Under the pieces are notes generated by a model. That model saw only the letters and a program-made list of their open reading frames with translations. It was not told the origin of the DNA and ran no database searches. From positions 1,240,001 through 1,304,000 of the forward strand of contig BLAA01000001.1 in assembly GCA_017312345.1 (NCBI GenBank): a DNA stretch of 64,000 bases. The letters are read 5' to 3'. This DNA comes from Candidatus Denitrolinea symbiosum (GTDB taxonomy: Bacteria > Chloroflexota > Anaerolineae > Anaerolineales > Villigracilaceae). The position numbers and the translations under genes were made by a program. Below, in pieces: positions 28,703-50,198 of the stretch (within the stretch, counting starts at the first letter, position 1; each line of letters opens with the position of its first letter).

Positions 28703-28723
28703 CCTCCGAGGGTGGCTCGGAGG
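28703..28723. terminator. Hairpin between the pilus block and the HEPN gene
   Basis: CCTCCGAG-ggtgg-CTCGGAGG, an 8-bp perfect GC-rich stem in the gap between two convergent genes. The T-tract is poor, so it may act with Rho or as a boundary. Confidence 0.5.
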
Positions 28724-28757
28724 CCTTCATGTGAAAACTGTCTGTTCTGAAATTTCG

Positions 28758-29873: not shown

Positions 29874-29892
29874 AATTTTGTGGTTTTAGGGA

Positions 29893-31158: not shown

Positions 31159-31365
31159 AGTTTTACCCTCGCATGTTAACGATTTGTTGCAAGTTTATGA
31201 AAGTATACCTGCATTTACAATTTATCTCAGAAGCGATCTTGCACTGAGCGATTGTGAACAGAGGAGATTTCATTTTGCCCACCAAGGTGGGCGATTGCCA
31301 GAATTATACAACTCAATAGCGACAGACGAACCCCTCCCTTTCCGCTAACAGAATATCATGCCCCC

Positions 31366-32648: not shown

Positions 32649-32667
32649 TCCTCGAAAGGAGATTTCG

Positions 32668-32934: not shown

Positions 32935-32936
32935 AT

Positions 32937-33410: not shown

Positions 33411-33417
33411 GAGAGAT

Positions 33418-34350
33418 ATGAGCACGTTATTGGCATTGATCGCTGCGTTGGCGTTGGCCGCCATTCCTATCGCGCTTGGCTGGCGGCGCATCGTAGATGA
33501 AGCAGGCATGGCGCGTGCGATGGGCATTGCCCAACCGAAGAAACGCTTCGACCCTGAGAAGTTTGCGCGTCAGACCGGAACCGGCCTAGCCTTCAACCAG
33601 ATCGCATATGGCTTTTTGGCTTGGGTGGGAGGCGGGTTGGCAGGCGGGATATTTCTCGGGATCTTTCCCGCCATCCTATTCGCCATAGCGGGTGGCTTGT
33701 TGTATGCCGGGACCTTGTCCGATAAACGCCAGGAATTTCGCCTGCGCCAGGCCAAGGACATCCTGCGCGGCCTGGGTGTAGTGGAGACTCTGTTGTCGCA
33801 GGGCAAGCCGCTGGGTGATGCGTTGGATGACGCGGCGCAAGCCGTGGGTCCGGATGGGAGAATGGTTCTCGGCGATCTGGTGATCCGCCTGCGCACCGCG
33901 CCCGCGGATGAGGCCGCACTGGCGGTGCGCGAATGGACAACCGCCTGGGACAATCCCGCCGTGGACATTGTAGCGACCTCTCTGCTGGCTTCGCTCGAAG
34001 GACGCATCGAGATCGGACCCTTGGTGGCTTCTTTGCGTAAGACTCTTGGTACTGTGGTTGAAGTTCTTTCGCGCGCCCGCGCCGCGGCCAAGGGTGTGGA
34101 ATGGCAGGCGCGTTTCCTGGCGCTCTTTCCCCCGGCTGTCTTGGTGGTGATCGCCATCACCACGCCGGAAACGGGCAGGCTATATTCCGCCAATCCATTA
34201 CTGCTTGCACCCGTGATCCTCGGCTCCGGCATTTCGTATTGGCTCTCCATGCGCATGATCCGCAACGGCTTGTCCATCGAGGCCTCGATGGGTTTGCAAG
34301 CCGGGGGTCAGGGCGAGATCCGTCTGGATCGGCTCGGTCGCGTACTGTGA
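33418..34350 (+). CDS. TadB/TadC-like type II secretion F-domain protein
   Basis: A 310-residue inner-membrane platform protein. The N-terminal helix MSTLLALIAALALAAIPIALG and a second hydrophobic pair (LAGGIFLGIFPAILFAIAGGLLY) frame a T2SSF-type cytoplasmic domain (RLRQAKDILRGLGVVETLLSQGKPLGDALDDAAQ). C-terminal helices follow (ALFPPAVLVVIAITTP and LLLAPVILGSGISYWL). The ATG at 33418 has AGGAG upstream, so the frame from 33376 is rejected. TadB/TadC interact with the TadA ATPase to extrude Flp pili. It ends with a GTGA overlap into the M23 peptidase gene. Confidence 0.7.
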   Translation: MSTLLALIAALALAAIPIALGWRRIVDEAGMARAMGIAQPKKRFDPEKFARQTGTGLAFNQIAYGFLAWVGGGLAGGIFLGIFPAILFAIAGGLLYAGTLSDKRQEFRLRQAKDILRGLGVVETLLSQGKPLGDALDDAAQAVGPDGRMVLGDLVIRLRTAPADEAALAVREWTTAWDNPAVDIVATSLLASLEGRIEIGPLVASLRKTLGTVVEVLSRARAAAKGVEWQARFLALFPPAVLVVIAITTPETGRLYSANPLLLAPVILGSGISYWLSMRMIRNGLSIEASMGLQAGGQGEIRLDRLGRVL

Positions 34351-35048
34351 AATTCCTTTCGCGTCTCCTGGTTTTCATCCTGATCCTGCCCTTCCTGTGC
34401 GGCGTGGCAATGGTGGTGGGCTACGTGTTGTTCATTGTCCTCACCATCCCGCAACTGCCTGCCTGGGCGCAACCTGCGGCTTACGAGTGGCTGTTCGATA
34501 TTCCGCAATATGCCGAGACCAGCGACAACGGCTCGTATAGCGGTTCGTCCCCGGCAGGTCCGAGCGCGGTACCGTGGGATGGGTACGTTGGGCCGGGCGC
34601 TGATATCCACGGCGTGCCGTTGTACGGTCCGCTCCAGCATTGGAGCACGTGGTACGACAAGCCGCTACTGGGTTGTGTGTTCCATGATTCACGCTATCAG
34701 ACTCACACCGGCGCGGACTTCCCGGTGAACGAAGGTACGCCTGTCCACACCACGCTGGCGGGGAAGGTAGTCTGGGCTGGGCCGAACGGTCCGTGGGGCA
34801 ATCTGGTGGTGGTGGAGAACAACGGCTACCAGGTCTGGTTCGCACATTTGAGTGCCATCAGCGTGTCGGTGGGCGACATCCTTGAATACGGCGACGTGGT
34901 GGGTTTGAGCGGCAACACCGGCAACAGCACCGGCGCGCATCTGCATTACGGTATCAAGCAGAAGACGGGAGAGGATACTTATGTCTGGCTCGACCCGCAG
35001 ATGTTCTTTACCGAAGATGAAGTCATTTATATCGGGTGTGGAGGCTGA
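34347..35048 (+). CDS. M23-family peptidoglycan peptidase
   Basis: A 233-residue exported peptidase starting at GTG 34347, which overlaps the TadB-like stop (GTGA). One N-terminal membrane helix (VFILILPFLCGVAMVVGYVLFIVL) anchors it. The M23 domain carries the zinc ligands in HTGADFPVNEGTPVHTTLAGKVV (H-x3-D) and in GNSTGAHLHYGIK (HxH), with VWFAHLSAI between them. LytM/M23 enzymes in conjugation and pilus clusters open the cell wall locally for the apparatus. The stop codon is 3 bases from the next gene. The window has no other obvious wall hydrolase besides the Rhs tail. Confidence 0.85.
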   Translation: MKFLSRLLVFILILPFLCGVAMVVGYVLFIVLTIPQLPAWAQPAAYEWLFDIPQYAETSDNGSYSGSSPAGPSAVPWDGYVGPGADIHGVPLYGPLQHWSTWYDKPLLGCVFHDSRYQTHTGADFPVNEGTPVHTTLAGKVVWAGPNGPWGNLVVVENNGYQVWFAHLSAISVSVGDILEYGDVVGLSGNTGNSTGAHLHYGIKQKTGEDTYVWLDPQMFFTEDEVIYIGCGG

Positions 35049-35051
35049 GCC

Positions 35052-36152
35052 ATGACCGTGCGTGTTTGCGATGCCACTTTTTCAGATTGGGTCAGCCTGC
35101 CGTTTCGTGACGGCTGGACGGATACTTTCATCATCCAGATTTCAGCACAAGCATGTCTTCCGCCGTTTGTGTACGAAGATCCCTTGAAGCGAATTGCATC
35201 GTACCTGGTGCGCAAACGCAGAAGCGCTTCCATCTGGGTGCAGGTGGACGCCCCCGGTGAATGGTATGCCTTGGAGTTACGATCTGCTCTGGAAGGTTTG
35301 AAACTGCCGTATGCGGTGACGCGCGCTGGGAAACAACTGGACTGGATTGATTTTGACAAGCCACCCTGGCTGGATTATCGTTCATCCGAGCGACCGCCAG
35401 CCGTTCCCGAGAAACCGCATGGCCTTTCTCCGGATGCGATCCGATGCTTGCAAGCTCTTGCACGGATGGGAAAGGGAGATGAGGATGAAATTGCTTCCCT
35501 GACCAGGCTTGCTTTGAATGATGTGAAATCCATCTTTGTTCATCTCTCCAAAGCGCAGTATATTGTTCATAAGATTGGCGAGAAGATTCAGCCGGGCAAG
35601 CCTGTGCAGATGGATCAGTTTCCACACTGGCACCTGCGCCGCAAGGGAAAGTCTCTGGCCTTTCGGCATTGGAATATCCCCGCGGGTTTTCCATTTGAGG
35701 CGTATACCGAAGCCAACCAATATCTGATGGAAACCCCACACCATCACCGCTCGCGTCTCTGGCCGGACTGGTTGCGCTCCGCCTGGCCACAGGCAGAGAT
35801 CTGGACCGGCTGGTGCGAGGTGCCCATTCCTGAAATATCGGTCTTGCCGGATGCATTGGCTTGGGGAAGAATCCAAGGCTATGAAACACTCTTTTGGCTG
35901 GAGGTGGGGGACACACACAAATCAAAAGAAGAGATCGAAGCCAACACTGTGACAAGAATGAACGAAGCCTTGAAACTGACCAGGCGCACGGGGATGCGTC
36001 TGATCTATACCCAACTCAGCACGAATTGGGTGCACGAGGCCGCGCGTTGGGCTTGTGTGAATTTAGAACCGGATGTGGCGGTGGTGATGGGAGACCAGCG
36101 GAGGGTGGGAGAATTGCCGATAATGGAGTGGGGAAAGCTCACAAAAAAATAA
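35052..36152 (+). CDS. Replication-relaxation-like / winged-helix protein
   Basis: A 366-residue protein. Residues 120-180 form a winged helix (SPDAIRCLQALARMGKGDEDEIASLTRLALNDVKSIFVHL). The C-terminal half has LPDALAWGRIQGYETLFWLEVGDTHKSKEEIEANTVTRMNEALKLTRR, a pattern like the PDg...f.lEvD.....s.e.i motif of replication-relaxation and mobilisation-associated endonuclease-like proteins. It ends the transfer block. A short copy of its 3' end lies 760 bp further on (36781-36942), so this gene has been duplicated or rearranged locally. Its N-terminal 100 residues are unfamiliar. Function in plasmid-like replication or relaxation is tentative. Confidence 0.55.
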   Translation: MTVRVCDATFSDWVSLPFRDGWTDTFIIQISAQACLPPFVYEDPLKRIASYLVRKRRSASIWVQVDAPGEWYALELRSALEGLKLPYAVTRAGKQLDWIDFDKPPWLDYRSSERPPAVPEKPHGLSPDAIRCLQALARMGKGDEDEIASLTRLALNDVKSIFVHLSKAQYIVHKIGEKIQPGKPVQMDQFPHWHLRRKGKSLAFRHWNIPAGFPFEAYTEANQYLMETPHHHRSRLWPDWLRSAWPQAEIWTGWCEVPIPEISVLPDALAWGRIQGYETLFWLEVGDTHKSKEEIEANTVTRMNEALKLTRRTGMRLIYTQLSTNWVHEAARWACVNLEPDVAVVMGDQRRVGELPIMEWGKLTKK

Positions 36153-36162
36153 GAAGGCAAGA

Positions 36163-36582: not shown

Positions 36583-36587
36583 AACAG

Positions 36588-36605: not shown

Positions 36606-37308
36606 GATGCTACCCAAATGCCAGGAGGGGTGGTGCGCAGGTGTCGTTTGTCGTGGGAGCGTCTTTCAACGGAAAAGGAGGTACTTCTCTTTCACTTCCA
36701 TCGTGATTTCCAATCGTTGATTCTTTGAGCTTGAGTGGGGGCACAAATAAGAAGAAGCAGGAATGTATGGTTGATGCAATGTAAATCGAATGAATGAGCC
36801 TGCACGCCGGGCTTGTGTGAAATTGGAGCCAGATGTGGCGGTGGTGAAGGGGGGGATCAGGGAAGGTTTAGGGAATTGCCGAAGCGGAGTGGGGGAAGGT
36901 GATTATCCTGTTTTTCAGAAAACCCGAAGGGATCAAAACTAAAACAACTTAAACCATAGTGCGAATTTGTTACAAGGTATCGCATTCACTATGGAGATGG
37001 TTGTCGTGTTCCGTTTCTTGGTTTCAAAGAAACCGGGAAATCCCAACCATGCATAGGAATGACCCCAATACATTTATTAAGGAGAATAGTTGATATTTTC
37101 GCGATAAAATCCATTTAGTATCGAATAATCAAACTATCATAAGGGATACCCTTGTCCCAAACCGTTGCTGTATTTCTCCAGTACCTTGCTTTCTTCCTTC
37201 GACCCAACTCGAAAGCCCGGACCCAAGTGATGGAGCATGAAATCTCGCGTAAGGAAAGAACGGAATTTCCATGATAGTACGATATCTACAACGCTCGGGG
37301 AGTAACCA
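36606..37308. other. About 700 bp without an intact gene
   Basis: This spacer separates the GC-rich transfer block from the addAB operon. It holds the 3' copy of the replication-relaxation-like gene (see the pseudogene entry) and a GGTTTC-aaa-GAAACC hairpin at 37020-37034. Otherwise it is AT-rich sequence with stops in all frames. A small minus-strand frame at 37137-37328 is not convincing. The promoter of addB is expected in its last 100 bases but I see no clear consensus. Confidence 0.6.
36781..36942 (+). pseudogene. Truncated copy of the 3' end of the replication-relaxation-like gene
   Basis: The block at 36801-36900 aligns by eye with 36041-36140 at an offset of exactly 760 bp. Shared runs include gcttgtgtga and gatgtggcggtggtga. 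Translation gives ARRACVKLEPDVAVVKGG against ARWACVNLEPDVAVVMGD in the intact protein, then a frameshift. Only the last ~35 codons survive and no ribosome site is visible, so it is a remnant of a duplicated gene or of a second copy lost by deletion. Confidence 0.7.
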
Positions 37309-40300
37309 GTGCCATCAGAATTAATCATCGCTCCTCCTGCGTCCGGAAAAACAGAAGCCTGTATCCAGAGAATCAGGGAAACCCTGTCAGAACATCCACT
37401 GGCTCAGATATGGGTTGTTGTGCCGGACCGGTTACAAGCAGCCGCGTTCCGTTATCGTCTGGCTTCGACAGGCGGTGCGATTGGCGCTTATGTTGGTACA
37501 TTTGGCGACCTATATCGAACCATTCTCGAACGTGCTGGGAACCATTTGCCGGTCGCTTCATCGCCATTTTTACACCGCTTGCTGCAGGAAGTAATTGATC
37601 AATCCGTGGGGCAGGGGGAACTTCAGTATTTTGCCCCATTGCAATTGGCGCCCGGTTTCATCCTAGCGTTACGCGACTCATTTGCCGAACTAAAACGCTC
37701 GATGATCTACCCCGACCAATTTTTGGAATTCGCGCAAACTGGTACCCAATCTCAAAAAGAATTGGCACTGTTGTACGAACGATACCAATCCCGTCTGCGC
37801 CAATTGAATTGGGCCGACCCGGAAGGGTTGAGTTGGCTGGCGGTTGAGGTATTGGAAAATGATTCAACCATTGCCTCGTCAATCCGTCTGCTGATAGTGG
37901 ATGGCTTTGACTCATTCACCGGTGCACAGCGTCAGGCGTTGAAATTGCTAACTGCTCAGGTCGATCACCTACTGATCACCTACCCTGGCGAAGAAACATC
38001 CACACGTCTCGCGCATCGCCGTTTTGTTCAGGGACTCGAAACGCTTCGTCGGGAATTCTCCCCGCAGATCACATCCATCCACATTGCTCCCAACCTGCAT
38101 ACCGATCTTCTACTGATCGAACGTCAACTATTCGAATCGGTGTCCGGTGACAAGCGCACATCTACCACATCCTTTCTGCTGGAGGCGCGTTCCCCAGCCG
38201 ACGAAGCGCGCGAAGCCCTACGCTGGATCAAGGCACGCGTCATTCGCGACAATGTGCCTTTAACAGACTGCGCCATCTTTGCGCCTAACCTCGATATCTA
38301 CCGTCCCCTGCTGCGCATGGCTGCTGCGGAATTTGGCATCCCCGTCCATTTCACCCAAGACGAATCGCTCAGTGCATCCCCAGCCATTGCTGCACTCCAA
38401 AACCTGCTCCGCCTGCCTGCCCAAAATTTCAAGATCCGTTCCATGTTCAACACCCTGCGTTCTCCGTATTTCGATTTTGGGTTGGACCATCCCATGATCG
38501 ACCGGCTCGAAACAATCAGTCGCGCGGCTTGTATTGTGGAAGGACGGGATCAATGGGAGGATACCTGGGAGCGACTTGCTCCTGCTGGACATCAGCTGGA
38601 TTCCGACATCGACGAGGAACGCACGCTGCCCGTACTTCCGCATGGCTCTGCTGCCCAAGTATTGAAAACCACCCTGGGCGGATTCTTTGAACGCGTCACG
38701 CCACCCGGCCAAACTCTACCCCATATACACTGGGTGGATTGGCTGGAAAGCCTGCTCGAAGATCTGCAATTCTATGAACATGCCAGCCATGAACGTGACC
38801 AACTTGCCTGCGTTGCGCTACGCGAGGCTTTACGCGCCTTAGTTCTAAGCGAGGCAGTGATTGGTGCGCGACAAGTGGACTATGTCCAATTTCTCTCTGA
38901 TCTACAAGGCACATTGGATGGAGTGATATTGCCCGAACTATCCATACCTGGTCAGCCTGCTTTGCTGGTCGGCAGAATGATGGAGGCGCGTGGGATTCGC
39001 TTTCAAGCGGTAGTGTTACTCGGATTATCTGAGGGCGTTTTTCCTGAAGTTGAACGCGCCGATCCGTTCCTGGATGAAAATTTGCGTCGGGAACTGGGGC
39101 TCGAATTACGCCTACAGCGCGAGCAGGCCGGCCTGTTCTATCAGGCAGTCACCCGCAGCGACCATCACCTGCTGATCACGCGTCCCTATCTTTCCGAGGA
39201 TGGCGAAGATTGGGAACCATCCCCATTTTGGAAGGCGGTTCAAAGCCTATTCGATGAATCCGCAGTTGTCAGGTTCCGTCCGGACGATCCCCGCCTGCTG
39301 ATCAATGCCGCATCCACACAGGAATTATTATTCTGGGCGGTGCGCCGCAAGGGACTCCCCAAACAGTATGTAGAATTACAGCCTCGCTGGGAGGCTCTGC
39401 GCAGGGCACGCGAGATCGTGCGCGCCCGGCGCGCCAGGGAAGCGGCCAGTCCATACGAAGGAAATGCCGAAGCGATTGTAAATGCTCTTACAGCGCGTTA
39501 TTCCCCTAGTCAGGTTTGGAGTGCATCGCGCCTGGAAGCCTATGGCACCTGCCCGCACATGTTCTACGTGCGCGTTGCGCTCGGATTGGAATCCGTCAGC
39601 ACGCCGGAATTGGGATTGGATACTAGCCAGATTGGCTCGCTCCTGCACAAAATATTGGAAGGGACGTACAAATCCGCCGATGATCCATCGAATGTGGAGT
39701 CGGTTCTAAAAACATTACCCGATCTGGCGAAACAGGTGTTTGCGACTGCCCCGCAGGATTATGGCTTTCGTCCCTCGCCGTTGTGGAATGTGGAACAGGC
39801 GCAATATTTGGCGGCACTAGAAGCAACCATCCGCGCCATCGCAGACGAGACAGGCTGGGTTCCCTTTGCTTACGAACAAACCTTTGGTCTGCACGGGAAT
39901 CCCCCACTCCAGGTCAATCTTGGCGGCGAAGCCTTGCTCATGCACGGCGTGATAGACCGCTTGGATCGCAATGAGCGCGGTGAAATTCGCGTGGTGGATT
40001 ACAAGACCGGTAGCAGCCATCTTGGGCAGAATGACCTCAAGGATGGCAGGCGTCTGCAATTGCCGCTGTATGCGCTGGCAGCGCGTGACGCGCTCGGATT
40101 GGGAAATCCTGTGGATGGTATGTATTGGAAGATCCTGGCAGCCGAGGCAGGCTCCCTCAAATTGGCAAAATTCAAGTCCGAGGGCGGACAGGGTGTGGAG
40201 GTTGCTATTCAAACAGCCAAAAGGCATTTGCGCAGGATCATCACTGGCATCCGTTCAGCCGACTTTCCGCCCGTACCACCCAAGGGGGGCTGTCCTGCGT

Positions 40301-40347
40301 ACTGTCCCGCCGCACAGTGGTGTTGGCGGTACGAGGCAGGTTGGTAA
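37309..40347 (+). CDS. addB: AddB-like helicase/nuclease subunit with Fe-S cluster
   Basis: A 1,012-residue AddB/RexB-type protein that processes double-strand ends with AddA. An N-terminal P-loop is present (IIAPPASGKTEACIQRI). The middle has LLIVDGFDSFTGAQ and GLSEGVFPEVERADPFL, a typical motif of inactivated helicase domains. The C-terminal PD-(D/E)XK nuclease has HGVIDRLDR...IRVVDYKTGSS. Four cysteines for the 4Fe-4S cluster are at YGTCPHMFY and GGCPAYCPAAQWCW. It starts at GTG 37309 with GGAG nearby and is slightly short for the family. AddA begins 3 bases after its stop. Its co-transcription with TerB/BrxD/Lhr genes is unusual and suggests a defence-coupled role besides repair. Confidence 0.9.
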   Translation: MPSELIIAPPASGKTEACIQRIRETLSEHPLAQIWVVVPDRLQAAAFRYRLASTGGAIGAYVGTFGDLYRTILERAGNHLPVASSPFLHRLLQEVIDQSVGQGELQYFAPLQLAPGFILALRDSFAELKRSMIYPDQFLEFAQTGTQSQKELALLYERYQSRLRQLNWADPEGLSWLAVEVLENDSTIASSIRLLIVDGFDSFTGAQRQALKLLTAQVDHLLITYPGEETSTRLAHRRFVQGLETLRREFSPQITSIHIAPNLHTDLLLIERQLFESVSGDKRTSTTSFLLEARSPADEAREALRWIKARVIRDNVPLTDCAIFAPNLDIYRPLLRMAAAEFGIPVHFTQDESLSASPAIAALQNLLRLPAQNFKIRSMFNTLRSPYFDFGLDHPMIDRLETISRAACIVEGRDQWEDTWERLAPAGHQLDSDIDEERTLPVLPHGSAAQVLKTTLGGFFERVTPPGQTLPHIHWVDWLESLLEDLQFYEHASHERDQLACVALREALRALVLSEAVIGARQVDYVQFLSDLQGTLDGVILPELSIPGQPALLVGRMMEARGIRFQAVVLLGLSEGVFPEVERADPFLDENLRRELGLELRLQREQAGLFYQAVTRSDHHLLITRPYLSEDGEDWEPSPFWKAVQSLFDESAVVRFRPDDPRLLINAASTQELLFWAVRRKGLPKQYVELQPRWEALRRAREIVRARRAREAASPYEGNAEAIVNALTARYSPSQVWSASRLEAYGTCPHMFYVRVALGLESVSTPELGLDTSQIGSLLHKILEGTYKSADDPSNVESVLKTLPDLAKQVFATAPQDYGFRPSPLWNVEQAQYLAALEATIRAIADETGWVPFAYEQTFGLHGNPPLQVNLGGEALLMHGVIDRLDRNERGEIRVVDYKTGSSHLGQNDLKDGRRLQLPLYALAARDALGLGNPVDGMYWKILAAEAGSLKLAKFKSEGGQGVEVAIQTAKRHLRRIITGIRSADFPPVPPKGGCPAYCPAAQWCWRYEAGW

Positions 40348-40350
40348 ACC

Positions 40351-43300
40351 ATGACAAAATCAATCGCTGAACGTGTGGTTGAAACCTTTGGGCTGACTCC
40401 CGCGCAAAAAGAAGCTGCCTTGGAGCGCGGGCGCGATGTCGCTGTGACCGCCGGCGCTGGCAGCGGCAAGACGCGTACCCTGGTGGCGCGCTATGCCAGT
40501 CTACTGGCGGACGGACTGCTCCCGCGCCGCGTGGTGGCGATTACATTTACTGAAAAAGCCGCGCGGGAAATGCGCTCGCGCGTACGCGATGCCCTGCAGG
40601 TGCTTGCCTCCAAGGCGGAGTCCGCGCCTGAAAAGGAACAATGGCTTTCCCTAGGTTCGCAATTGGACTCTGCCCGCATCGGAACCATCCACAGCCTGTG
40701 CGCCGAAATCCTGCGGGCGCATCCCGCCGAGGCCGGTGTTGATCCGCGCTTCGATGTGTTGGATGAGGGCCTGTCCGCGGCGTTGTGCGCAGAGGTGGTC
40801 GAGGAAACGCTTTCCACACTGGTTGGCCAGCCGCAATTTACACTGCTCTTCCAAGTGTTCGAAACACGGGGCGTGCAGACTCTGTTGGAGACGTTGCTGG
40901 GGCGCCGATTGGAAGCGCAGGAAACGTTCAACCAAAACATGGACAGCGAACACCTGATCCGCCAAATCCTTTCGGAACGGATGAAATCGCCGTCTCTCAT
41001 GGAACCCATCGCTGAGTTGCGTCATATCCCCATCTCCAGCCTGATGAATAACGAGGGCGACAAGTTCGGTGAAATGGTAAAGGCGCTTCTCCTTCTTTGG
41101 GATCTGGCAGAGGCAGCATTGGAGAAAGGAGATGCGATCGCCTGCGCGGAGAGTTTGTTCCAGGCGCGCCGGACAAAAATGAGCGGGACGGTCGGCAAGA
41201 AAGGTAGCGCACTCAAGGATACGGTCGCTGCCATCAAAGAGGCCTATGATGAATTGCTCGATCCATTGATTGGCGGTTCGGATTCAAAAGATACACCGCC
41301 CAGCCGGGAAAGTGAAGCGCTGTTCGCGGAACTTCAACCGTTGGTTCGATTCGCCTTTGAGTTTTTGCACAATGCCTACCGGGAGCGCCTACGTCAACGG
41401 CAGGCGCTCGATTTCGATGATCTTGAGTACGGAGCCATGCAATTGTTGAAACGCGCCGACATCCGTACCCACTGGCAGGCCGAACTGGATTCCCTGCTGG
41501 TGGATGAATTTCAGGATACCAACGCCCGCCAGCGTGAAATAGTACAAGGGTTGAGCGGCGCACCTGGACGGTTGTTTGTGGTCGGCGACGCCCGCCAGAG
41601 TATTTATCGTTTCCGGCGTGCAGATGTGACCGTATTCCGCGCTATCCAGAAAAAGGTAAGCGATGAAGGCGGCCTAGTCAAGAATCTGGATATTACCTAC
41701 CGCGCCCACGACCCGCTCCTGTCTGCCACCGGGGATCTGCTCGCGGACATCATGGGGACCGAAGCCGATCCTGCGCGCCCATACTACGTTCCGTTTTCGC
41801 CACTGAATGCTGATCGAAAATTGGTACCGGATCATCTGAAGGAACCACATGTGGAAATCGTGCTCGGCGCGGGAGAGGATACTGCTTCTGCCCGGCCTGT
41901 CGCGGCGCGGGCGTTAGCCACCCGCTTATTGGAACTCAAGGAAGCCGGCCAAATCCGCACTTGGGATGATGTGACCCTGCTTTTCCGCGCTTCGACCGGA
42001 TACATTCATTATGAGGACGCCTTCGAGGAAATTGGCATTCCGTTTGTGACTGTCTCGGGGCGCGGCTTCTACAACCGTCCGGAGATTCGGGATGTGCTCA
42101 ACCTGCTACGTACCTTGGCCGATCCAGCTGATGATCTGGCGATGGCCGGTCTGTTGCGTTCCCCGGCATTTGGCCTGACCGACGCGGCGTTGTATCAATT
42201 GCGCTGGCAAGGCAAAACGCCCCTTGCCTATTGGACAGCTTTGCAGACCGATCTTTCCCTTCTGAGCGAAGCAGACCATGCGCAAGCCGTGCGCGCCTTG
42301 CAAATCCTGAGCATTCTTTTGCCGCTCGTCGATCGCATCCCAGTCGCCGAACTGCTGAAACAGCTGGTGGATCTAACCGATTATCGCGCTATTCTGGCCG
42401 CGGATGATTCCTCCGGTAGTGCGCGGCTCTGGCGCAACCTTGACAAGCTCATCGGCGATGCCCAATCCAGTGGACAGGTGAACGTACGCGACTTTCTGCA
42501 ATACCTTGCCACGCTCAGCGACGCTGGCGCGCGTGAAGGCGAAGCGCCGGTCGAGGCGCAGGGCGCAGTCCGTTTGATGACGATCCACAAATCCAAGGGA
42601 CTCGAATTTCCATTGGTTGTGCTAGCCGATGCCGGTCGCGACCCGCGCGGCGGAAGCGATAATGTTTACCTGCTACCGGAATATGGTCTATCGTTCAAAT
42701 TGGAAAATCCCCCGTTGTTATATCGCCTGTCCCGCTGGCTGGACAAACAGCAGAATGAAGCCGAAACGCAACGATTGTTATATGTTGCCTTGACCCGCGC
42801 CAAGGATAAGTTGCTCATCAGCGGGCACGCCACGCCGACTCGAAGCGGCAGCGCGATGACCGTTTCTGCATGGATGGCCAACCTTTGTGAGGCCGCAGGT
42901 GTGGATGTTCAGGTTGCAATAGATCAGAGTGGAACACCTATTTCAACTAGGACAAAATCCGGTCATGGGATTCGCACTCTGTGCATTTCCAAGAATGCAG
43001 GTGAAATCCCCAGTGTGGAACAGGCAGCCAGAGCAACGCTGGAAGAACCCAACCTCGTCTCTTTGTATCCCCCGCTTGCAGTGCCGGTTTCTGCTTCCGT
43101 TTCCGAGGATGAACCGGAACCATCCCATCCCTGGCGCGCCACTGGTAGCGGGCAACCTGTGCCCGCTGGCGTTATCGGGCAGATGGTTCACAAGGCTATT
43201 GAATTGTGGCTCTTCCCGGATGATCCCCGTGTAATACCTATGTTGGAAGCTGTGGCGCTCCAGGCCGGCCTGGCCGGCGAGGTACAGCGTAGCGAAGCGG

Positions 43301-43650
43301 TTCGGCGAGTGCGTGAACTGCTCGAACGCTTCCGCATGCATCCCCTATGGGAAGAGATCAATTCTGCGGAGGAACGGCATCACGAACTTCCCTACTCGCG
43401 CATGGCAGATGGGCGTGCGGAAGCGGGATACATCGATCTGCTCTATCGAAATACATCCGGCTGGAAGGTTATCGATTTCAAAACGGATATAATTCGCAAC
43501 GAAGCGGTGCGTACGAAATTGGCAGGACAATATAAAAATCAAATGCTCAGATACGAAAAGGCCATTGAAACACTTGTGGGGCAGGCGCCACAGGTCTACA
43601 TCTGTTTTCTTGACGATCACGGAAGTCTCAATATCCATCCGATTACTTGA
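40351..43650 (+). CDS. addA: AddA-like UvrD-family helicase/nuclease
   Basis: A 1,099-residue SF1A helicase-nuclease. Motif I is AVTAGAGSGKTRTLVARY, motif Ia-like is VVAITFTEKAAREMRSR, motif II is SLLVDEFQDTN, motif III is GRLFVVGDARQSIYRFRRA, and motifs V/VI are VRLMTIHKSKGLEFPLVV and LLYVALTRAKDKLL. The C-terminal RecB-type nuclease reads AGYIDLLYR...WKVIDFKTDII (D...DFK). All core residues are present, so it should be active with AddB. The 68 bases after it before the TerB-type gene have no terminator, so read-through of a five-gene operon is likely. Confidence 0.92.
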   Translation: MTKSIAERVVETFGLTPAQKEAALERGRDVAVTAGAGSGKTRTLVARYASLLADGLLPRRVVAITFTEKAAREMRSRVRDALQVLASKAESAPEKEQWLSLGSQLDSARIGTIHSLCAEILRAHPAEAGVDPRFDVLDEGLSAALCAEVVEETLSTLVGQPQFTLLFQVFETRGVQTLLETLLGRRLEAQETFNQNMDSEHLIRQILSERMKSPSLMEPIAELRHIPISSLMNNEGDKFGEMVKALLLLWDLAEAALEKGDAIACAESLFQARRTKMSGTVGKKGSALKDTVAAIKEAYDELLDPLIGGSDSKDTPPSRESEALFAELQPLVRFAFEFLHNAYRERLRQRQALDFDDLEYGAMQLLKRADIRTHWQAELDSLLVDEFQDTNARQREIVQGLSGAPGRLFVVGDARQSIYRFRRADVTVFRAIQKKVSDEGGLVKNLDITYRAHDPLLSATGDLLADIMGTEADPARPYYVPFSPLNADRKLVPDHLKEPHVEIVLGAGEDTASARPVAARALATRLLELKEAGQIRTWDDVTLLFRASTGYIHYEDAFEEIGIPFVTVSGRGFYNRPEIRDVLNLLRTLADPADDLAMAGLLRSPAFGLTDAALYQLRWQGKTPLAYWTALQTDLSLLSEADHAQAVRALQILSILLPLVDRIPVAELLKQLVDLTDYRAILAADDSSGSARLWRNLDKLIGDAQSSGQVNVRDFLQYLATLSDAGAREGEAPVEAQGAVRLMTIHKSKGLEFPLVVLADAGRDPRGGSDNVYLLPEYGLSFKLENPPLLYRLSRWLDKQQNEAETQRLLYVALTRAKDKLLISGHATPTRSGSAMTVSAWMANLCEAAGVDVQVAIDQSGTPISTRTKSGHGIRTLCISKNAGEIPSVEQAARATLEEPNLVSLYPPLAVPVSASVSEDEPEPSHPWRATGSGQPVPAGVIGQMVHKAIELWLFPDDPRVIPMLEAVALQAGLAGEVQRSEAVRRVRELLERFRMHPLWEEINSAEERHHELPYSRMADGRAEAGYIDLLYRNTSGWKVIDFKTDIIRNEAVRTKLAGQYKNQMLRYEKAIETLVGQAPQVYICFLDDHGSLNIHPIT

Positions 43651-43718
43651 CCTCGTTGTTCTGAATTTGTGCCCATATCTATAGCCATGTGTGCACATCA
43701 ACAAGCCGGTAAATTTTT

Positions 43719-45590
43719 ATGCCCAAACGATCAAAAAAATCCAATCAAGGTTGTTGCCTGGTTTCCCTGGTGATCTGGCCATTCAAGTTGCTGGAAGACC
43801 TGATCAATTCAATTATTAATCCACCTGCTGCATCAAAAACCCAATCCCTCCAACAAAGAAACACACTAGTCCGTCCACCAAAGAGAGCCAGCGGCACGGA
43901 CCGATTTGTCGATGTGACGCCTGGCGGTAGACAGAGGCCAAATACGCCATCCATCGGCGTCACGATTTCGTATGAAAATTCTCACACCAATTTTGTAAAG
44001 GAAGCTCAAAAGTTTAGAAGCAAGGAAGGGAAAATCGCCAGCCATGTTCCTTTCAAGTGCTATTGGCCGACATACGGAAACATGAATGGCGGGCAGCAAC
44101 AATGGTATTTCTATTGGCGGACACAGGTGCGCCTGGGTACGTTTCTTCCCACAGATTTAAGTTATATCTTCGTACATGTGTATGAAATTCTGAACTTGGT
44201 GGAAACACCAGACCCTGTTCAGGCGGCGGATCGACTTCGTATCCTATGGATGCGCTATCGGGAGGCCTACCCCAATTTGGATGGGTATCTGGCCGATTGG
44301 GGCGGCGATTTACTGGCGGTGAAATCTGGCGGAGTGCATGCCCTGGCTTGGTGGGAAAATCTTCTCGGGATGGATGGTTTGAGAATCCCCGATCCGATCA
44401 TTAATACCATTGTGGAAAAGGCGATCCGAACCAATGGGTTGGACAAACTTCCCTATAAAATCTGGGCGTTACTCTCCGATTACCAACCCAAAAACAAGTT
44501 CTACCAAAGATACAATGCGAACCATTATGTGGATTTGGCCTATGAAAAAGCGATAAAAGTCGCCAACGACTTTTATCTTCAAACATCGCAGAAATCCCTG
44601 ATCGACCAATTTGTTTCGGATCGTATTCAGAATTATGAAAAACAGGTGTTCACCTCAGCGATTATTGGTTACCCCTGCCCGCGCGTGATCCGCCTCGCAA
44701 GTGGGCGGGATTATGCGGGCTCGCCCCGCCTGGCAGCCAATATTACCTCCATTATGAAATACGCTGAGAATCTATTACGGAAACAATTGAAGTTTTCCGC
44801 AAAACTTTCCGGCGTTGAACTTCCACCCGAATTGGCAAAAAAGTTAGACATTGTCTTCCAATCTATTAAACCCAAACCTCAAAAACCAGAGCCCATACGC
44901 ATTGCGCTAGACCCTGGCCGTATCGCAACGCTGCACCAGGAAAGCCAGGTTGTAAGCGAAATGCTGGCAACCAACCAGAATTCCAGTGGAAAAGCATTAT
45001 TGACGGACTTGAGTGAAATGCGCACGCTTTGGAAACTGCTGAATAATCTGGAACGTCTGATGCTTGCCGGCTTGCTTAGCAAGGAGTTGAACTCATCTTC
45101 CGGGATCGAACAGGCGTATGGAGCGACAGCCGAAAAAGTGAAAAGCACGCTAGATGATATCAACAATAAAGCATCGCCTGTTCTTGGGGACCATCTGGTC
45201 TACGAAGCCAATTCCTCCATTAGCCTGGCGGAGGACTTTATCGATGAACTGGAGGTGATTGTGAAAGAATCCCCTCCCAATCTTGATACCTTGTCTGTCG
45301 ATGGCGCTGATGTCAATAACGATCCCTGGGTGCAGTTCTTTGATACACTTGAGCCAATTGAAGTCGAGATAACGAAGATCCTTGGAGACAGTGGACAGCT
45401 GGATGAACTAGAATTGGACAGTATCGCAAGGGTCCATAATTTAATGGGGAACGCGGTGATGGATTCCCTGAATGAAAAAGCTCAGGAAACCCTGAGCCAT
45501 CTTCCCTTTTATCCTGATGGCGGATACTGGCTTGTGGAAGAGGATGATCTGCCCACCTTGCGACAATATCTTGGTATTGAGGTGAATTAA
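43719..45590 (+). CDS. TerB-N/TerB-C domain protein
   Basis: A 623-residue protein. After a hydrophobic stretch near the N-terminus (CCLVSLVIWPFKLLEDLIN) and a basic linker, the TerB-N domain is recognised by QQWYFYWRTQVRLGTFLPTDLSYIFVHVYEILN. The C-terminal end, LDELELDSIARVHNLMGNAVMD...LPFYPDGGYWLVEEDDLPTLRQYL, is TerB-C-like. Between them is a long helical region. TerB-N/C proteins were described in tellurite/stress ('Ter') gene neighbourhoods together with P-loop ATPases and helicases. The gene ends 2 bases before the BrxD-like gene. The protein likely scaffolds or senses at the membrane, since the N-terminal hydrophobic patch could anchor it. Confidence 0.8.
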   Translation: MPKRSKKSNQGCCLVSLVIWPFKLLEDLINSIINPPAASKTQSLQQRNTLVRPPKRASGTDRFVDVTPGGRQRPNTPSIGVTISYENSHTNFVKEAQKFRSKEGKIASHVPFKCYWPTYGNMNGGQQQWYFYWRTQVRLGTFLPTDLSYIFVHVYEILNLVETPDPVQAADRLRILWMRYREAYPNLDGYLADWGGDLLAVKSGGVHALAWWENLLGMDGLRIPDPIINTIVEKAIRTNGLDKLPYKIWALLSDYQPKNKFYQRYNANHYVDLAYEKAIKVANDFYLQTSQKSLIDQFVSDRIQNYEKQVFTSAIIGYPCPRVIRLASGRDYAGSPRLAANITSIMKYAENLLRKQLKFSAKLSGVELPPELAKKLDIVFQSIKPKPQKPEPIRIALDPGRIATLHQESQVVSEMLATNQNSSGKALLTDLSEMRTLWKLLNNLERLMLAGLLSKELNSSSGIEQAYGATAEKVKSTLDDINNKASPVLGDHLVYEANSSISLAEDFIDELEVIVKESPPNLDTLSVDGADVNNDPWVQFFDTLEPIEVEITKILGDSGQLDELELDSIARVHNLMGNAVMDSLNEKAQETLSHLPFYPDGGYWLVEEDDLPTLRQYLGIEVN

Positions 45591-45592
45591 TT

Positions 45593-46936
45593 ATGCCGAT
45601 CATGAAACGGGAAGCCAAAACAATTCTAAACTCGCTAAGCGCCGGAGTTGTCCCCCGAACTGGGCTCCGGTATATTTCCGTAGGGCGGTTGCCGGAAATT
45701 GCCGCGCTGAAAAGCGACCTGGATCACAATCGTGAAGGCGGGGCGACGGTTCGCTTTGTCATCGGTCGTTATGGAAGCGGAAAAAGCTTTTTGCTTCAAC
45801 TCATGCGCACCTATGCCTTGGAAAGCAAATTTGTCGTAGCGGATTCGGATTTCTCGCCGGAACGCAGACTGTTTGGGTCAGGGGATGAAGCCATCGCCAC
45901 CTACCGGGAGCTGATGAAGAATCTATCCACCCAAACCCGCCCGGACGGGAATGCGCTTCCTGCCATTGTCGAAAAGTGGATATCCGGCATTCAAGCCAGT
46001 GTTGCCGCGGAAGGCGGTCTGGAACCAGGTTCTCCCCAGTTTGTGAGCCAGGTCAAAGCCCGCATTGTCAGCACCCTCAATGAAATGCAGGAACTGGTCC
46101 ATGGCTTTGATTTTGGCAACATTCTCGCTGCTTATTATCAGGGATACTCTGATAACAACGATGAATTGAAAGCCAGCGCCATTCGATGGCTGCGCGGGGA
46201 ATACTCCACGAAGACGGAAGCGTTTACAGCCTTGAAGGTGCGCTCGATCATCGATAGCAATAATTTCTATGATTACCTGAAGGTTCTTGCGGTCTTTTTC
46301 GAAAAAATTGGTTATGCCGGGCTGGTGGTTTGTCTGGATGAAGCAGCCTATCTTTACAAGATCACGAACAGCATATCCCGAAACAATAATTACGAGGCGA
46401 TTCTCTCGATTGTCAATGATTGTTTGCAGGGAAAAGCCGCACATATCGGTTTTTTGATCTGCGGAACGCCCGAGTTTCTGGAGGATCAGCGCCGGGGTTT
46501 GTTTAGTTACGAGGCTTTACGATCCCGTCTGGCTGCCAATCGATTTATCGGCGAGGGTTTGCAGGATTTCACCGGCCCGGTCATCAAACTTTCATCCCTG
46601 ACCGCTGAGGAGATTTTTGTTCTTCTCCAGAAAATCCGTGAAATTCATCGCGATCAAGCCATTACAGCAGTCAGGATGACGGATCAGGATATTCATGCGT
46701 ATATGGAGGAGACTCTGCGCCGGATGGGTGCACGGGAATTTACCACGCCGCGTGAGCTGGTGCGGGAGTTTGTCAACTTGCTAAATTTACTGGTTCAATA
46801 CCCCGATAAGAACTGGCAGGAGATTGTTCTTGGTTTGCCAGCGCCAAGCGAACCATCGCCTGAGGAATCCCCCGAGCCCTCGGGGACCGTTGAAGATGAC
46901 CCATTGAATCGGTTCAACGACTTTAAAGTGAACTAA
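45593..46936 (+). CDS. BrxD-like (DUF2791) ATP-binding protein
   Basis: A 447-residue P-loop protein. Walker A is VRFVIGRYGSGKSFLLQLM (Gly61-Ser65 region) and the Walker-B-like strand is YAGLVVCLDEAAYLYKI. A sensor-like IGFLICGTPEFLEDQRRGLFSYEALRSRLAAN follows. The N-terminal helix REAKTILNSLSAGVVPRTGLRYISVGR is the typical DUF2791/BrxD start. The C-terminal domain includes FTTPRELVREFVNLLNLL. BrxD is known from BREX types 2 and 3 beside an Lhr-type helicase, which is also the next gene here (1 base away). No BREX methyltransferase, PglZ or BrxC is present, so this is a BrxD module used in another system. Confidence 0.85.
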   Translation: MPIMKREAKTILNSLSAGVVPRTGLRYISVGRLPEIAALKSDLDHNREGGATVRFVIGRYGSGKSFLLQLMRTYALESKFVVADSDFSPERRLFGSGDEAIATYRELMKNLSTQTRPDGNALPAIVEKWISGIQASVAAEGGLEPGSPQFVSQVKARIVSTLNEMQELVHGFDFGNILAAYYQGYSDNNDELKASAIRWLRGEYSTKTEAFTALKVRSIIDSNNFYDYLKVLAVFFEKIGYAGLVVCLDEAAYLYKITNSISRNNNYEAILSIVNDCLQGKAAHIGFLICGTPEFLEDQRRGLFSYEALRSRLAANRFIGEGLQDFTGPVIKLSSLTAEEIFVLLQKIREIHRDQAITAVRMTDQDIHAYMEETLRRMGAREFTTPRELVREFVNLLNLLVQYPDKNWQEIVLGLPAPSEPSPEESPEPSGTVEDDPLNRFNDFKVN

Positions 46937-46937
46937 A

Positions 46938-49133
46938 ATGTCAGCCCCAAATGCCTTTGAGCGACTTGCCCCTTTTGTACAGGAGTTCGTCTACCGGTTG
47001 GGCTGGAAAGAATTACGCGTCCTGCAGGCCCAGGCTATTGACGCCATTTTCGATACCGACCATGATGTGTTGATCACAACAGGAACCGCCAGCGGAAAAA
47101 CGGAGGCGGCATTTCTTCCCATCCTGAGCCTGATCGCAGGCGAGCCGACCGGATCGGTGAGGGCGCTTTATATTGGTCCGCTCAAGGCGTTGATCAACGA
47201 TCAATTCCGGCGGCTTGAATTGTTGTGCGAGGCTGGTGGCATTCCCATCCATCGCTGGCACGGGGATGTTGGTAGTAATCAAAAATCCGACCTGGTGGAA
47301 CACCCTAGCGGGGTTCTGCAAATTACACCTGAATCGATTGAAAGCCTGTTTATCAACAAAACGAATTACTTGCACCGCCTGTTCGGTGGTTTACAGTTCA
47401 TTGTCGTGGATGAAGTGCATTCCTTCATGGAATCCGACCGGGGCGTGCAATTACGAAGCCAATTGCAACGCATTGAGAAATATTCCAAATTATCCCGGCC
47501 GAGACGGATCGGTTTATCGGCCACGGTTGGGGACATGGAATCTGCAAGACGGTGGCTACATCCTCAGGATCCGTCCAAGGTGCAAATTATCAACCCGGAT
47601 GTCGCTGTGGCGCCAGTGCGATTAAGCCATCTGCACTTTACCCTAACGAAGGAAGAGGTTCCTTCCGAACTAATCGATGATCTTTATGCCCTTACCAAAA
47701 ATAGGCGGGCGCTAGTATTCTGTAATAGCCGCAAAAACGTGGAAGTTTTGACCGCACAACTTAATCGTAGAAGCAACCGCGAACGCATCCCCGAGCACTA
47801 TCTTCCCCATCACGGCTCTATTAGTAAGGAAATTCGGGAGGATGCCGAGACGCGCATGCGGGATGACGATCATCCGACATCGGTCATTTGTACGAACACA
47901 CTTGAATTGGGGATTGATATTGGCCAATTGGATCTGGCCGTTCAAGTGGACAGTACGCATACCGTCATGTCATTTGTTCAACGACTGGGCCGGACCGGGC
48001 GGCGCCAGGGCGCCAATCGCATCATGCAAATTTACACCTCGGAGATGCAGTCTGAGCCGGGCGATGAATTCTATGAAAGGCTTCCGTTCTCATTGCTAAA
48101 GGCGCTGGCGATTGTGGATTTGTTCCTGGAAGGCTGGCTGGAACCGCCCTTTGAACGAACCGTCCCCTATAATGTTCTCTATCACCAACTCCTTTCAAGG
48201 CTGGTGGAGACACACGGTAGCACTCCCAAAGATTTGGTCGGACATTTCCTGGGATCGAACGTTTTTCCGGGTGTCACTCCACAGGATTATGCCGATTTAC
48301 TCAAGCATCTTGGAAGTATTGACCATATCGAACAACTGGAAACGGGTGAACTGATTCTGGGCCTGGCTGGTGAAAAAATCGTGCGATCGAAGGATTTCTA
48401 TGCTGTTTTTGCAACGCCGCCTGAATGGGATGTATTTTATAAAGAGCGTACTTTGGGGCGGATCACTCCCAAGCCGGATTTGCAGCCGGGAACCTGTTTA
48501 TTGCTGGTGGGAAGACTGTGGGAGGTAAAGGATATTTTTCCGGACAAACAGCAGGTTATGGTCAGTCCGGCAAAAGAGGCGCATGATGTAATGTTTTTGG
48601 GGTTGGGCATTCCGGAGATGCACCCCAAAATAGCCCAGCGTGTACGTGAACTTTTACTTTCGGAAAACCCCTTTCCCTATCTAGGCGCAAGTGGGCAACA
48701 AGCATTATTGGATGCGCGTCGCATGAGTCAGGATTGGGGAATCGGGCAGGAAAGAATATTTGAATCTGGGGGAAAGTGGGTCATATTTCCGTGGACAGGT
48801 ACACGTGCAGCTCGGACACTTCAATATTGGTTCCAGGCATGTGGCCTTAAAGCGGAATTTCCCATGATGATGTTCCCCTGGGTTATGACTATTGACAAGT
48901 CTGCCCCGGAAGAAGCAAGAGAGCAGTTCATTAACCGTTTACAAGAAATTGAAGCATCTGGGTATGAGTTAGAGGATATTGTTGATTCCATCCCGATTGA
49001 CAGTCTGCGCGTTCATAAATTTGATGAATTTTTGCCTGACGATTTGATTCAAAAGAGAACAGGACAGGAATGGCTGGATTGGGAACAGGCAAAGATGGAT
49101 TTACAGGGAATTATTCAGGAATCCTTGAATTGA
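46938..49133 (+). CDS. Lhr-like DEVH-box helicase (BrxHI/BrxHII type)
   Basis: A 731-residue SF2 helicase. Motif Q/I is LRVLQAQAIDAIF...VLITTGTASGKTEAAFLPIL, motif Ia is ALYIGPLKALINDQF, motif II is FIVVDEVHSFM, motif III is RIGLSATVGD, motif V is TSVICTNTLELGIDIGQLD and motif VI is SFVQRLGRTGRRQG. A winged-helix/Lhr-core region follows. It is shorter than Lhr and lacks a large C-terminal extension. In BREX-2/3-type loci such helicases partner BrxD. The last coding part runs up to 49133, and the WYL regulator's operator lies 28 bases later. Confidence 0.88.
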   Translation: MSAPNAFERLAPFVQEFVYRLGWKELRVLQAQAIDAIFDTDHDVLITTGTASGKTEAAFLPILSLIAGEPTGSVRALYIGPLKALINDQFRRLELLCEAGGIPIHRWHGDVGSNQKSDLVEHPSGVLQITPESIESLFINKTNYLHRLFGGLQFIVVDEVHSFMESDRGVQLRSQLQRIEKYSKLSRPRRIGLSATVGDMESARRWLHPQDPSKVQIINPDVAVAPVRLSHLHFTLTKEEVPSELIDDLYALTKNRRALVFCNSRKNVEVLTAQLNRRSNRERIPEHYLPHHGSISKEIREDAETRMRDDDHPTSVICTNTLELGIDIGQLDLAVQVDSTHTVMSFVQRLGRTGRRQGANRIMQIYTSEMQSEPGDEFYERLPFSLLKALAIVDLFLEGWLEPPFERTVPYNVLYHQLLSRLVETHGSTPKDLVGHFLGSNVFPGVTPQDYADLLKHLGSIDHIEQLETGELILGLAGEKIVRSKDFYAVFATPPEWDVFYKERTLGRITPKPDLQPGTCLLLVGRLWEVKDIFPDKQQVMVSPAKEAHDVMFLGLGIPEMHPKIAQRVRELLLSENPFPYLGASGQQALLDARRMSQDWGIGQERIFESGGKWVIFPWTGTRAARTLQYWFQACGLKAEFPMMMFPWVMTIDKSAPEEAREQFINRLQEIEASGYELEDIVDSIPIDSLRVHKFDEFLPDDLIQKRTGQEWLDWEQAKMDLQGIIQESLN

Positions 49134-49160
49134 GCAACAAATTCCAAGAAATCAGTGTCA

Positions 49161-49197
49161 CAGAGTGCACACTGGCTGCACTCTGTTATTGTATACT
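49161..49197 (+). promoter_or_regulatory. Promoter with a perfect 9-bp operator palindrome
   Basis: CAGAGTGCA-cactggc-TGCACTCTG at 49161-49185 is a perfect inverted repeat. A TATACT -10-like box lies at 49192-49197 and the WYL start codon is at 49230. The palindrome overlaps the -35 region, as expected for a repressor site. The adjacent WYL protein is the obvious candidate to bind it. Confidence 0.65.
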
Positions 49198-49229: not shown

Positions 49230-50198
49230 ATGTCCCAGCGCCAACAATTAGAACGTATCATGACCATTGACCGCCGCATCCGGGATGGTGAGTATCCGAA
49301 TGCAGATCGTCTTGCCAGCGATTTGGAGGTTAGCCGGAGGGTTATATTCATGGACCGCGATTTCATGAAAAACCGTTTGGGCGCGCCTATGGAATATGAC
49401 CGCGATCATGGAGGATGGTATTACTCTGATGAAACCTGGGTGCTCCCAGGAATTATTGTGACCAAAGGTGAAATATTGGCGTTTTTCTTGAGTGTAGAAG
49501 TAGCCAAACGATATTTGGGAACTGGATTGGAAGAGACTTTACGATCGGCTGTTGAAAAATTATCAAAGAATGTCAGCGGTTCAATTACAGTAGATCTGGA
49601 TACACTCCGTTCACATTATAGTTTCTCGGCCCCCACCCTGCTGGCTGCAAATGAACAGGCGTTGCTTGATCTACATCACGCCATTGCCGGCTCTAGAAAA
49701 CTATGGATGCGTTACTACACCGCCAGCCGTGATGAGCATACCGAACGCACAGTTCATCCTTATCATTTGAGCAATATTCGCGGAGACTGGTATTTGATAG
49801 GGTACGATGAGCTCCGCAAGCAAATTCGCAATTTTTCTGTGGGCCGAATCGAAGAGTGGAAATTAACGAGAGAGAAATTTAAGCGCAATCCAGAATTCTC
49901 TGTCGCTAAATATATGGGGGCTGCATTTCAGGCTGAGCGAGGGGGAGAAACGGTTGAGGTCGTAATTCGCTTTGCCCCGCAAGCAGCTCGCTATGTTCGA
50001 GAAAAACACTGGCACGACACGCAACGAATTGAGGAGAAAGATGATGGTGGGCTCACCCTCACACTTAATACCAGCGGATTAGGCGAAGTAAAGCGGTGGG
50101 TCTTACAATATGGTGGAGATGCAGAAGTGATGTCCCCATCCAGTTTGCGTGAAGAATTCAAGAAAGAAATAAATTCCATGAAAAGGAGATACAGCTAA
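49230..50198 (+). CDS. WYL-domain transcriptional regulator
   Basis: A 322-residue regulator: N-terminal winged helix (RQQLERIMTIDRRIRDGEYPNADRLASDLEVSRRVIFMDRDFMK), then the WYL domain (KLWMRYYTASRDEHTERTVHPYHLSNIRGDWYLIGYDELRKQIRNFSVGRIEEW), then a WCX-like C-terminal part (GGLTLTLNTSGLGEVKRWVLQYGGDAEVMSP). Start ATG 49230 with GAAAGG upstream; the frame from 49155 would run through the operator. WYL regulators (for example CapW and BrxR) repress defence operons and release them in response to nucleic acid or nucleotide ligands. Here it sits between the Lhr-like helicase and the unrecognised pair, and may control either or both. Confidence 0.88.
   Translation: MSQRQQLERIMTIDRRIRDGEYPNADRLASDLEVSRRVIFMDRDFMKNRLGAPMEYDRDHGGWYYSDETWVLPGIIVTKGEILAFFLSVEVAKRYLGTGLEETLRSAVEKLSKNVSGSITVDLDTLRSHYSFSAPTLLAANEQALLDLHHAIAGSRKLWMRYYTASRDEHTERTVHPYHLSNIRGDWYLIGYDELRKQIRNFSVGRIEEWKLTREKFKRNPEFSVAKYMGAAFQAERGGETVEVVIRFAPQAARYVREKHWHDTQRIEEKDDGGLTLTLNTSGLGEVKRWVLQYGGDAEVMSPSSLREEFKKEINSMKRRYS

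What the first reader, a model, noticed from the sequence alone, without database searches (positions are those of the whole stretch)
37309..49133. AddAB-TerB-BrxD-Lhr five-gene operon
AddB and AddA are separated by 3 bases, and TerB-N/C, BrxD-like and Lhr-like genes follow with gaps of 68, 2 and 1 bases. TerB-N/C proteins with P-loop ATPases and helicases are known from Ter-type stress neighbourhoods, and BrxD-Lhr pairs from BREX-2/3. Here they join an end-processing nuclease without any methyltransferase or PglZ. I infer a system that recognises foreign DNA without modification and hands it to AddAB.
Basis: partly seen in the sequence, partly recalled or inferred. Interest (0 to 1): 0.75.

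Follow-up and report, generated by a model that had tools for sequence, protein, structure and literature searches.

The report
Shango defence operon with AddAB upstream
Three of the five genes are a known bacterial anti-virus system called Shango; the other two are a DNA-end-chewing enzyme pair (AddAB) that, in one order of bacteria, travels on mobile DNA and repeatedly sits directly in front of different anti-virus systems, which suggests, but does not prove, that it is a shared tool of these systems.

Summary
Genes 3-5 are Shango (SngA/SngB/SngC; PADLOC E 5e-64, 2e-175, 4e-229), a published three-gene anti-phage system, so they are not a new BREX-like trio. Genes 1-2 are an intact AddB-AddA pair and the only RecBCD-type enzyme found in this genome. 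The pair is accessory: it is absent from a same-species genome and found in 80 of 400 genomes of the order (Anaerolineales). Two relatives carry it besides a housekeeping-looking AddAB. The five-gene order recurs (G005, G701, SURF_68; independently G406), in 4 of 10 Shango loci of the order and 2 of 80 from a wide genome scan. The AddABs beside closely related Shangos are not one clade (AU p 0.0009), and close AddAB relatives precede pPIWI-RE or helicase/type III methyltransferase genes. In the window the genes are cargo of an ICE-like element whose hotspot carries type I RM, DISARM, reverse-transcriptase, Shango or AddAB-Shango cassettes in other copies. Best reading: Shango plus an exchangeable AddAB helicase-nuclease module. 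Joint action is inferred, not shown. Several Shango genomes lack any AddAB, so it is not a fixed five-gene system.

The parts
37309..40347 (+). AddB-like helicase-nuclease subunit, 1012 aa; GKT (13-15), GVIDR880, DYKT897, cysteines 748/995/999/1005
40351..43650 (+). AddA-like helicase-nuclease subunit, 1099 aa; AGAGSGKT34, DEFQ385, GYIDL1026, DFKT1042
43719..45590 (+). SngA (Shango), TerB_N/TerB_C protein, 623 aa; N-terminal hydrophobic stretch at residues 11-29
   Evidence: PADLOC SngA 4.6e-64; Pfam; hydropathy
45593..46936 (+). SngB (Shango), BrxC/BrxD-type ATPase, 447 aa; Walker A GRYGSGKS58
   Evidence: PADLOC SngB 2.1e-175
46938..49133 (+). SngC (Shango), BrxHI/Lhr-like SF2 helicase, 731 aa; DEVH158
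   Evidence: PADLOC SngC 4.3e-229
49160..49186 (.). perfect 10-bp inverted repeat ACAGAGTGCA-N7-TGCACTCTGT followed by TATACTT; conserved before the related WYL genes in L061, L063, L079; probable WYL operator/promoter
49230..50198 (+). WYL/WCX regulator; start revised from 49155 by comparison with 323-aa relatives; flanks AddAB in L061, L063, L079
35052..36152 (+). orf366 of the ICE-like backbone; its 3' end is the cargo insertion point
36763..36861 (+). remnant of a second orf366 3' end (55% over 33 aa) just before addB; marks a cassette junction
26406..36152 (+). conserved backbone of an ICE-like element (DnaB-like ATPase, PrgI-like (weak), 324-aa protein 89-96% identical between genomes, M23 peptidase, orf366); two minus-strand genes at 28758-31158 interrupt it in the window

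Best explanation
The locus is a Shango anti-phage operon (SngABC) with an accessory AddAB helicase-nuclease directly in front, carried as one cassette in the defence-cargo hotspot of an ICE-like element of Anaerolineales. AddAB is an exchangeable module: the same subfamily also precedes pPIWI-RE islands and a helicase/type III methyltransferase set, and it has been acquired or replaced next to Shango more than once. Likely mechanism (inferred): Shango, whose ATPase, helicase and TerB protein carry no recognised nuclease domain, engages invading or replicating phage DNA; AddAB loads on double-stranded ends (phage genome ends, or ends exposed by the first system) and degrades the DNA. Shown here: gene identities, intact motifs, accessory distribution, recurrent adjacency, separate histories of AddAB and Shango, and the cargo hotspot. 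Inferred: co-transcription, cooperation, and degradation of phage DNA.
For: PADLOC hits SngA/SngB/SngC. The same order occurs in G005 (L032), G701 (L067), SURF_68 (L125) and, in another family with a 2-bp AddA-SngA gap, in G406 (L106). AddB relatives are in 80 of 400 order genomes and absent from the same-species and sampled same-genus genomes. G609 and G601 carry an accessory AddAB plus another AddAB in a conserved, housekeeping-looking neighbourhood. Downstream partners of close AddAB relatives include WYL + pPIWI-RE (L061, L063) and a SNF2 helicase + type III methyltransferase (L062). AU test rejects one clade for the AddABs next to the window-type Shango (p 0.0009), while the Shango genes do not reject it (p 0.10). 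Eight backbone copies carry different defence cargo after orf366, with orf366 3'-end remnants at junctions but none between AddA and SngA. Catalytic residues are conserved across 59 AddAB pairs.
Against: Shango works without AddAB in PAO1 (PMC10250203), and Shango genomes G318, G618 and G734 show no AddAB-type protein. Close Shango L126/L206 has none next to it. The arrangement is confined to Anaerolineales in what was searched. L032 has a good promoter-like match between AddA and SngA, so co-transcription is not assured; such matches are no more frequent than chance. Linkage may come from the cargo hotspot alone. Co-occurrence by genus is weak (p 0.09).
Confidence: 0.55

Rival explanations
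1. Passenger of a hotspot: AddAB and Shango are neighbours only because both are carried in the same ICE cargo site; AddAB acts alone (double-strand-break repair, or its own degradation of phage DNA).
For: The hotspot holds unrelated defence cargo in other copies; AddAB relatives occur without any recognised defence partner in many loci; AddAB is the only RecBCD-type enzyme in G000, so it could serve repair; some relatives sit beside SbcCD-like genes.
Against: The same upstream, same-strand adjacency also occurs in G406, where no backbone gene was found in the fetched region; no cassette junction lies between AddA and SngA; AddABs of different lineages occupy the same place before related Shangos.
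Confidence: 0.3
2. Guard or licence model: the defence system monitors AddAB. Phage proteins that block RecBCD-type enzymes would trigger or license Shango, as proposed for Gabija and reported for OLD and retron Ec48 with RecBCD; the linked AddAB would be the guarded protein or bait.
For: Precedent in PMC12407980 and PMC12904381; AddAB is linked to several unrelated DNA-targeting systems.
Against: Active sites of both nuclease domains are intact and conserved, which fits an active enzyme at least as well as a bait; nothing here tests sensing.
Confidence: 0.1
3. Obligate new five-gene system that recognises foreign DNA and passes it to AddAB.
For: Compact order and recurrence in related and unrelated lineages.
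Against: 78 of 80 Shango loci of the wide scan have no AddAB neighbour; Shango genomes without AddAB; AddAB relatives linked to other systems.
Confidence: 0.05

Closest known systems
Shango (SngABC; Millman 2022; Johnson et al. 2023, PMC10250203)
   Same: Gene content, order and PADLOC families of genes 3-5
   Different: Published Shango is three genes; here AddAB precedes it. SngA of this clade has an N-terminal hydrophobic stretch.
AddAB helicase-nuclease (Bacillus type)
   Same: AddB-AddA pair, helicase and nuclease motifs, four-cysteine pattern in AddB
   Different: Scores below the NCBIfam equivalog cut-offs (addA 312 of 708 bits, addB 151 of 904); mobile and patchy rather than conserved.
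BREX types 2/3 (BrxD, BrxHI/Lhr)
   Same: Related ATPase and helicase families
   Different: No PglZ or methyltransferase; BrxD equivalog score 176 against cut-off 350; SngB/SngC models fit far better.
Gabija and RecBCD (PMC12407980)
   Same: Precedent for a defence system whose action depends on a RecBCD-type enzyme
   Different: There the enzyme is the host's, not encoded in the defence locus.

Membership tests
Shango | SngA TerB-domain protein | tested here: met
   PADLOC SngA 4.6e-64; Pfam TerB_N and TerB_C above cut-off
Shango | SngB ATPase and SngC helicase, in order SngA-SngB-SngC | tested here: met
Shango | anti-phage activity | not testable with these tools
   shown for P. aeruginosa PA14 Shango in PAO1 (PMC10250203), not for this locus
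AddAB | adjacent AddB and AddA with intact helicase and nuclease motifs | tested here: met
AddAB | NCBIfam AddA/AddB equivalog cut-offs | tested here: not met
   best model but below cut-off for both; called AddAB-like for this reason
AddAB | Chi-regulated end resection | not testable with these tools
   needs biochemistry
BREX 2/3 | PglZ and methyltransferase genes | tested here: not met
   none among the five genes or the neighbouring genes scanned
BREX 2/3 | BrxD equivalog | tested here: not met
   175.8 bits against cut-off 350
fixed AddAB-Shango five-gene system | AddAB constantly linked to Shango | tested here: not met
   4 of 10 in the order; 2 of 80 in the wide scan

The most novel reading that the evidence does not exclude
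AddAB-type helicase-nucleases have become interchangeable front modules of DNA-targeting defence systems (Shango, pPIWI-RE, helicase/type III methyltransferase) in Anaerolineales, supplying a shared end-processing or guide/substrate-generating step in trans to unrelated sensors.
Probability: 0.3. Interest if true: 0.75.

Novelty: new variant of a known kind. Interest (0 to 1): 0.48.

Why it matters
Shango's mechanism is listed as unknown in a 2026 review (PMC12926258) and no nuclease domain was recognised in its proteins here. A lineage in which a helicase-nuclease is encoded directly in front of it, and is exchanged between defence systems, gives a concrete and testable hypothesis for how it destroys phage DNA, and asks whether RecBCD/AddAB of ordinary hosts does the same job. 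In the papers searched I found no report of AddAB linked to Shango or pPIWI-RE.

Tried and rejected
1) BREX-like trio: rejected on PADLOC and NCBIfam scores. 2) Idea that Shango requires a RecBCD/AddAB-type enzyme and brings its own: weakened, since G318, G618 and G734 have Shango but no AddAB-type protein, and no RecC family was found in any of 16 Shango genomes. 3) WYL as regulator of the whole operon: not supported, its palindrome occurs once in the window, before WYL itself. 4) At first I read the orf366 fragment in L126 as a truncated gene; L214 showed a full orf366 upstream, so it is a junction remnant. 5) The second AddA-like hit in G000 (C1:218576) is a UvrD helicase with an intein-type insert, not a second AddA. 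6) Structure of SngA: AlphaFold model too weak (pLDDT 55) for a fold search; mostly helical. 8) Mutte et al. 2025 on repair proteins and immune systems is not held. 9) The FastTree tree put the window's AddAB with the pPIWI/SbcCD-linked group, the IQ-TREE mixture tree at the base of the G005/L062 group; both agree that the Shango-linked AddABs are not one clade.

Full report
OBSERVATION. The five ORFs are at 37309-40347, 40351-43650, 43719-45590, 45593-46936 and 46938-49133, all on the + strand, with gaps of 3, 68, 2 and 1 bases. Pfam gives ADDB_N + PDDEXK_1; UvrD + PDDEXK_1; TerB_N + TerB_C; BrxC_BrxD; DEAD + Helicase_C. Motifs of both helicase-nuclease subunits, of the ATPase and of the SF2 helicase are intact.

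WHAT THE LAST THREE GENES ARE. PADLOC names them SngA (4.6e-64), SngB (2.1e-175) and SngC (4.3e-229), in the Shango order. The BrxD model scores half its cut-off. Shango was described as a TerB-helicase-ATPase system that protects PAO1 from several phages (PMC10250203); its mechanism is listed as unknown in a 2026 review (PMC12926258).

IS THIS ADDAB HOUSEKEEPING? A whole-genome search of G000 finds no second AddA; the other hits are UvrD/PcrA-type helicases, one with an intein-type insert, and small PD-(D/E)XK proteins. AddB relatives occur in 80 of 400 genomes of the order, but not in the same-species genome G622 nor in the sampled same-genus genomes G064, G096, G634 and G693. G609 and G601 have both an accessory AddAB (L061, L068) and one in a neighbourhood conserved between genomes (L098, L092). 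So the pair is accessory here, though it could still do repair.

IS IT LINKED TO SHANGO? In 400 order genomes SngB occurs in 10. Four of these have AddAB directly upstream on the same strand: G000, G005, G701 and G406. G005 and G701 are close relatives. In G406 (another family) the AddA-SngA gap is 2 bp. G181, in another family of the phylum, has AddAB 5 kb downstream of Shango. A wide scan gave 80 Shango loci, of which only SURF_68 and the G406 record have AddAB; some contigs are too short to tell. Seven of 10 Shango genomes of the order have AddB somewhere against 80 of 400 overall (p 0.0007), but counted by genus the excess is weak (p 0.09). Direct adjacency in three separate cases is much less likely than random placement even within small islands (a rough model).

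SEPARATE HISTORIES. AddAB of the window is closer to AddABs that precede pPIWI-RE or a helicase/type III methyltransferase set than to those of G005/G701 (61-64% against 57-58%). Holding the AddABs of the window, G005, G701 and SURF_68 as one clade is rejected (AU p 0.0009). The Shango genes do not reject it (p 0.10), although Shango of G618, which has no AddAB, falls inside the group. AddAB was therefore acquired more than once or replaced next to related Shangos. G406 adds an independent case on both trees.

PARTNERS OF ADDAB. Among about 60 AddAB loci of the order the pair is nearly always kept, while the next genes vary: Shango; WYL + pPIWI-RE (L061, L063); SNF2 helicase + type III methyltransferase + DEAD helicase (L062); two AAA/STAND-like proteins, one with TPR repeats (L070); DUF4132 protein (L068); WYL + radical SAM (L079); SbcCD-like pair (L065, L075, L083, L085, L109, L115); many without a recognised partner.

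CARRIER. Window 26406-36152 matches a backbone found in at least eight element copies in the family, including a second copy in G000 at C1:1068559. It holds a DnaB-like ATPase, a weak PrgI match, an M23 peptidase and a 324-aa protein 89-96% identical between genomes; 'ICE-like' is inferred from these. After orf366 each copy has other cargo: type I RM (G634), reverse transcriptase + NERD helicase (G000 copy 2; G337 has matching ORF sizes), DrmA-DrmB + methyltransferase (second copies of G701 and, by ORF sizes, G005), an HKD-SNF2 helicase (G112), Shango alone after a two-gene cassette (G618), AddAB-Shango (window, G005, G701). The 3' end of orf366 is repeated at junctions: window 36763-36861, L214 14997-15140, L212 8914-8699, L213 9180-8965. 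None lies between AddA and SngA. DNA similarity of Shango starts at the SngA start codon (43716-43718) in L067, L032 and L214, so Shango is a discrete block and AddAB a second one.

REGULATION. WYL relatives start at a position equal to 49230 in the window; a palindrome AGTGCAC...GTGCACT and TATACTT precede WYL in the window, L061, L063 and L079. WYL therefore probably has its own promoter. No promoter-like site was found in the 68-bp AddA-SngA gap of the window, whereas L032 has a 10/12 match in its longer gap; neither scan exceeds chance.

MECHANISM. Shown: gene identity, intact motifs, accessory and mobile nature, recurrence, exchange. Inferred: Shango engages phage DNA and AddAB degrades DNA from its ends. 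Rivals are a hotspot passenger and a guard/licence model after Gabija, OLD and retron Ec48 (PMC12407980, PMC12904381). Only phage tests in a recBCD-deficient laboratory host can decide.

VERDICT. Known system (Shango) in a new combination with a mobile AddAB; not an obligate five-gene system. Interest moderate.

Noticed in passing
window 57290-60802: HmaA-like SNF2/DEAD helicase (PADLOC 1676 bits) with NOV_C domain; no HmaB or HmaC recognised beside it in the genes scanned.
   Followed up: partly
window 50368-54321 and 54323-56665: Two large ORFs (1317 and 780 aa, 1 bp apart) in a 38-40% G+C stretch, no Pfam or PADLOC match above cut-off; the first has helicase-like motifs (GTGSGKT, DEQED, QAIGRTERR). 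Possible unknown defence pair.
   Followed up: partly
L093, L102, L105, L108, L111, L112, L113, L120 and relatives: Recurrent set: ZorD/DpdE-like SNF2 helicase (about 950-1140 aa) upstream of a more distant AddB-AddA, often followed by a pRiA4b ORF-3-like protein; may be a defence system of its own.
   Followed up: partly
L207, L127 and window 43719-45590: SngA of this Shango clade has an N-terminal hydrophobic segment: strong transmembrane-like in L207 and L127 (mean hydropathy 2.9), weaker in the window (1.6); suggests membrane attachment of the TerB protein.
   Followed up: partly
L039 (Deinococcus psychrotolerans plasmid): AddB-like and AddA-like genes followed by a small protein, WYL, DUF499, DUF3780 and an anti-phage-associated DUF1156 protein: another AddAB next to a defence system, in another phylum.
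   Followed up: partly
G000:C1:212000-228000 (L011 6556-9813): UvrD helicase of 1085 aa interrupted by an intein/Hint-type insert.
   Followed up: partly
L212, L213, L214 and window 35925-36861: Cargo cassettes of the ICE-like element are separated by repeats of the 3' end of orf366, which looks like a site for stepwise cassette insertion; the recombinase was not identified.
   Followed up: partly
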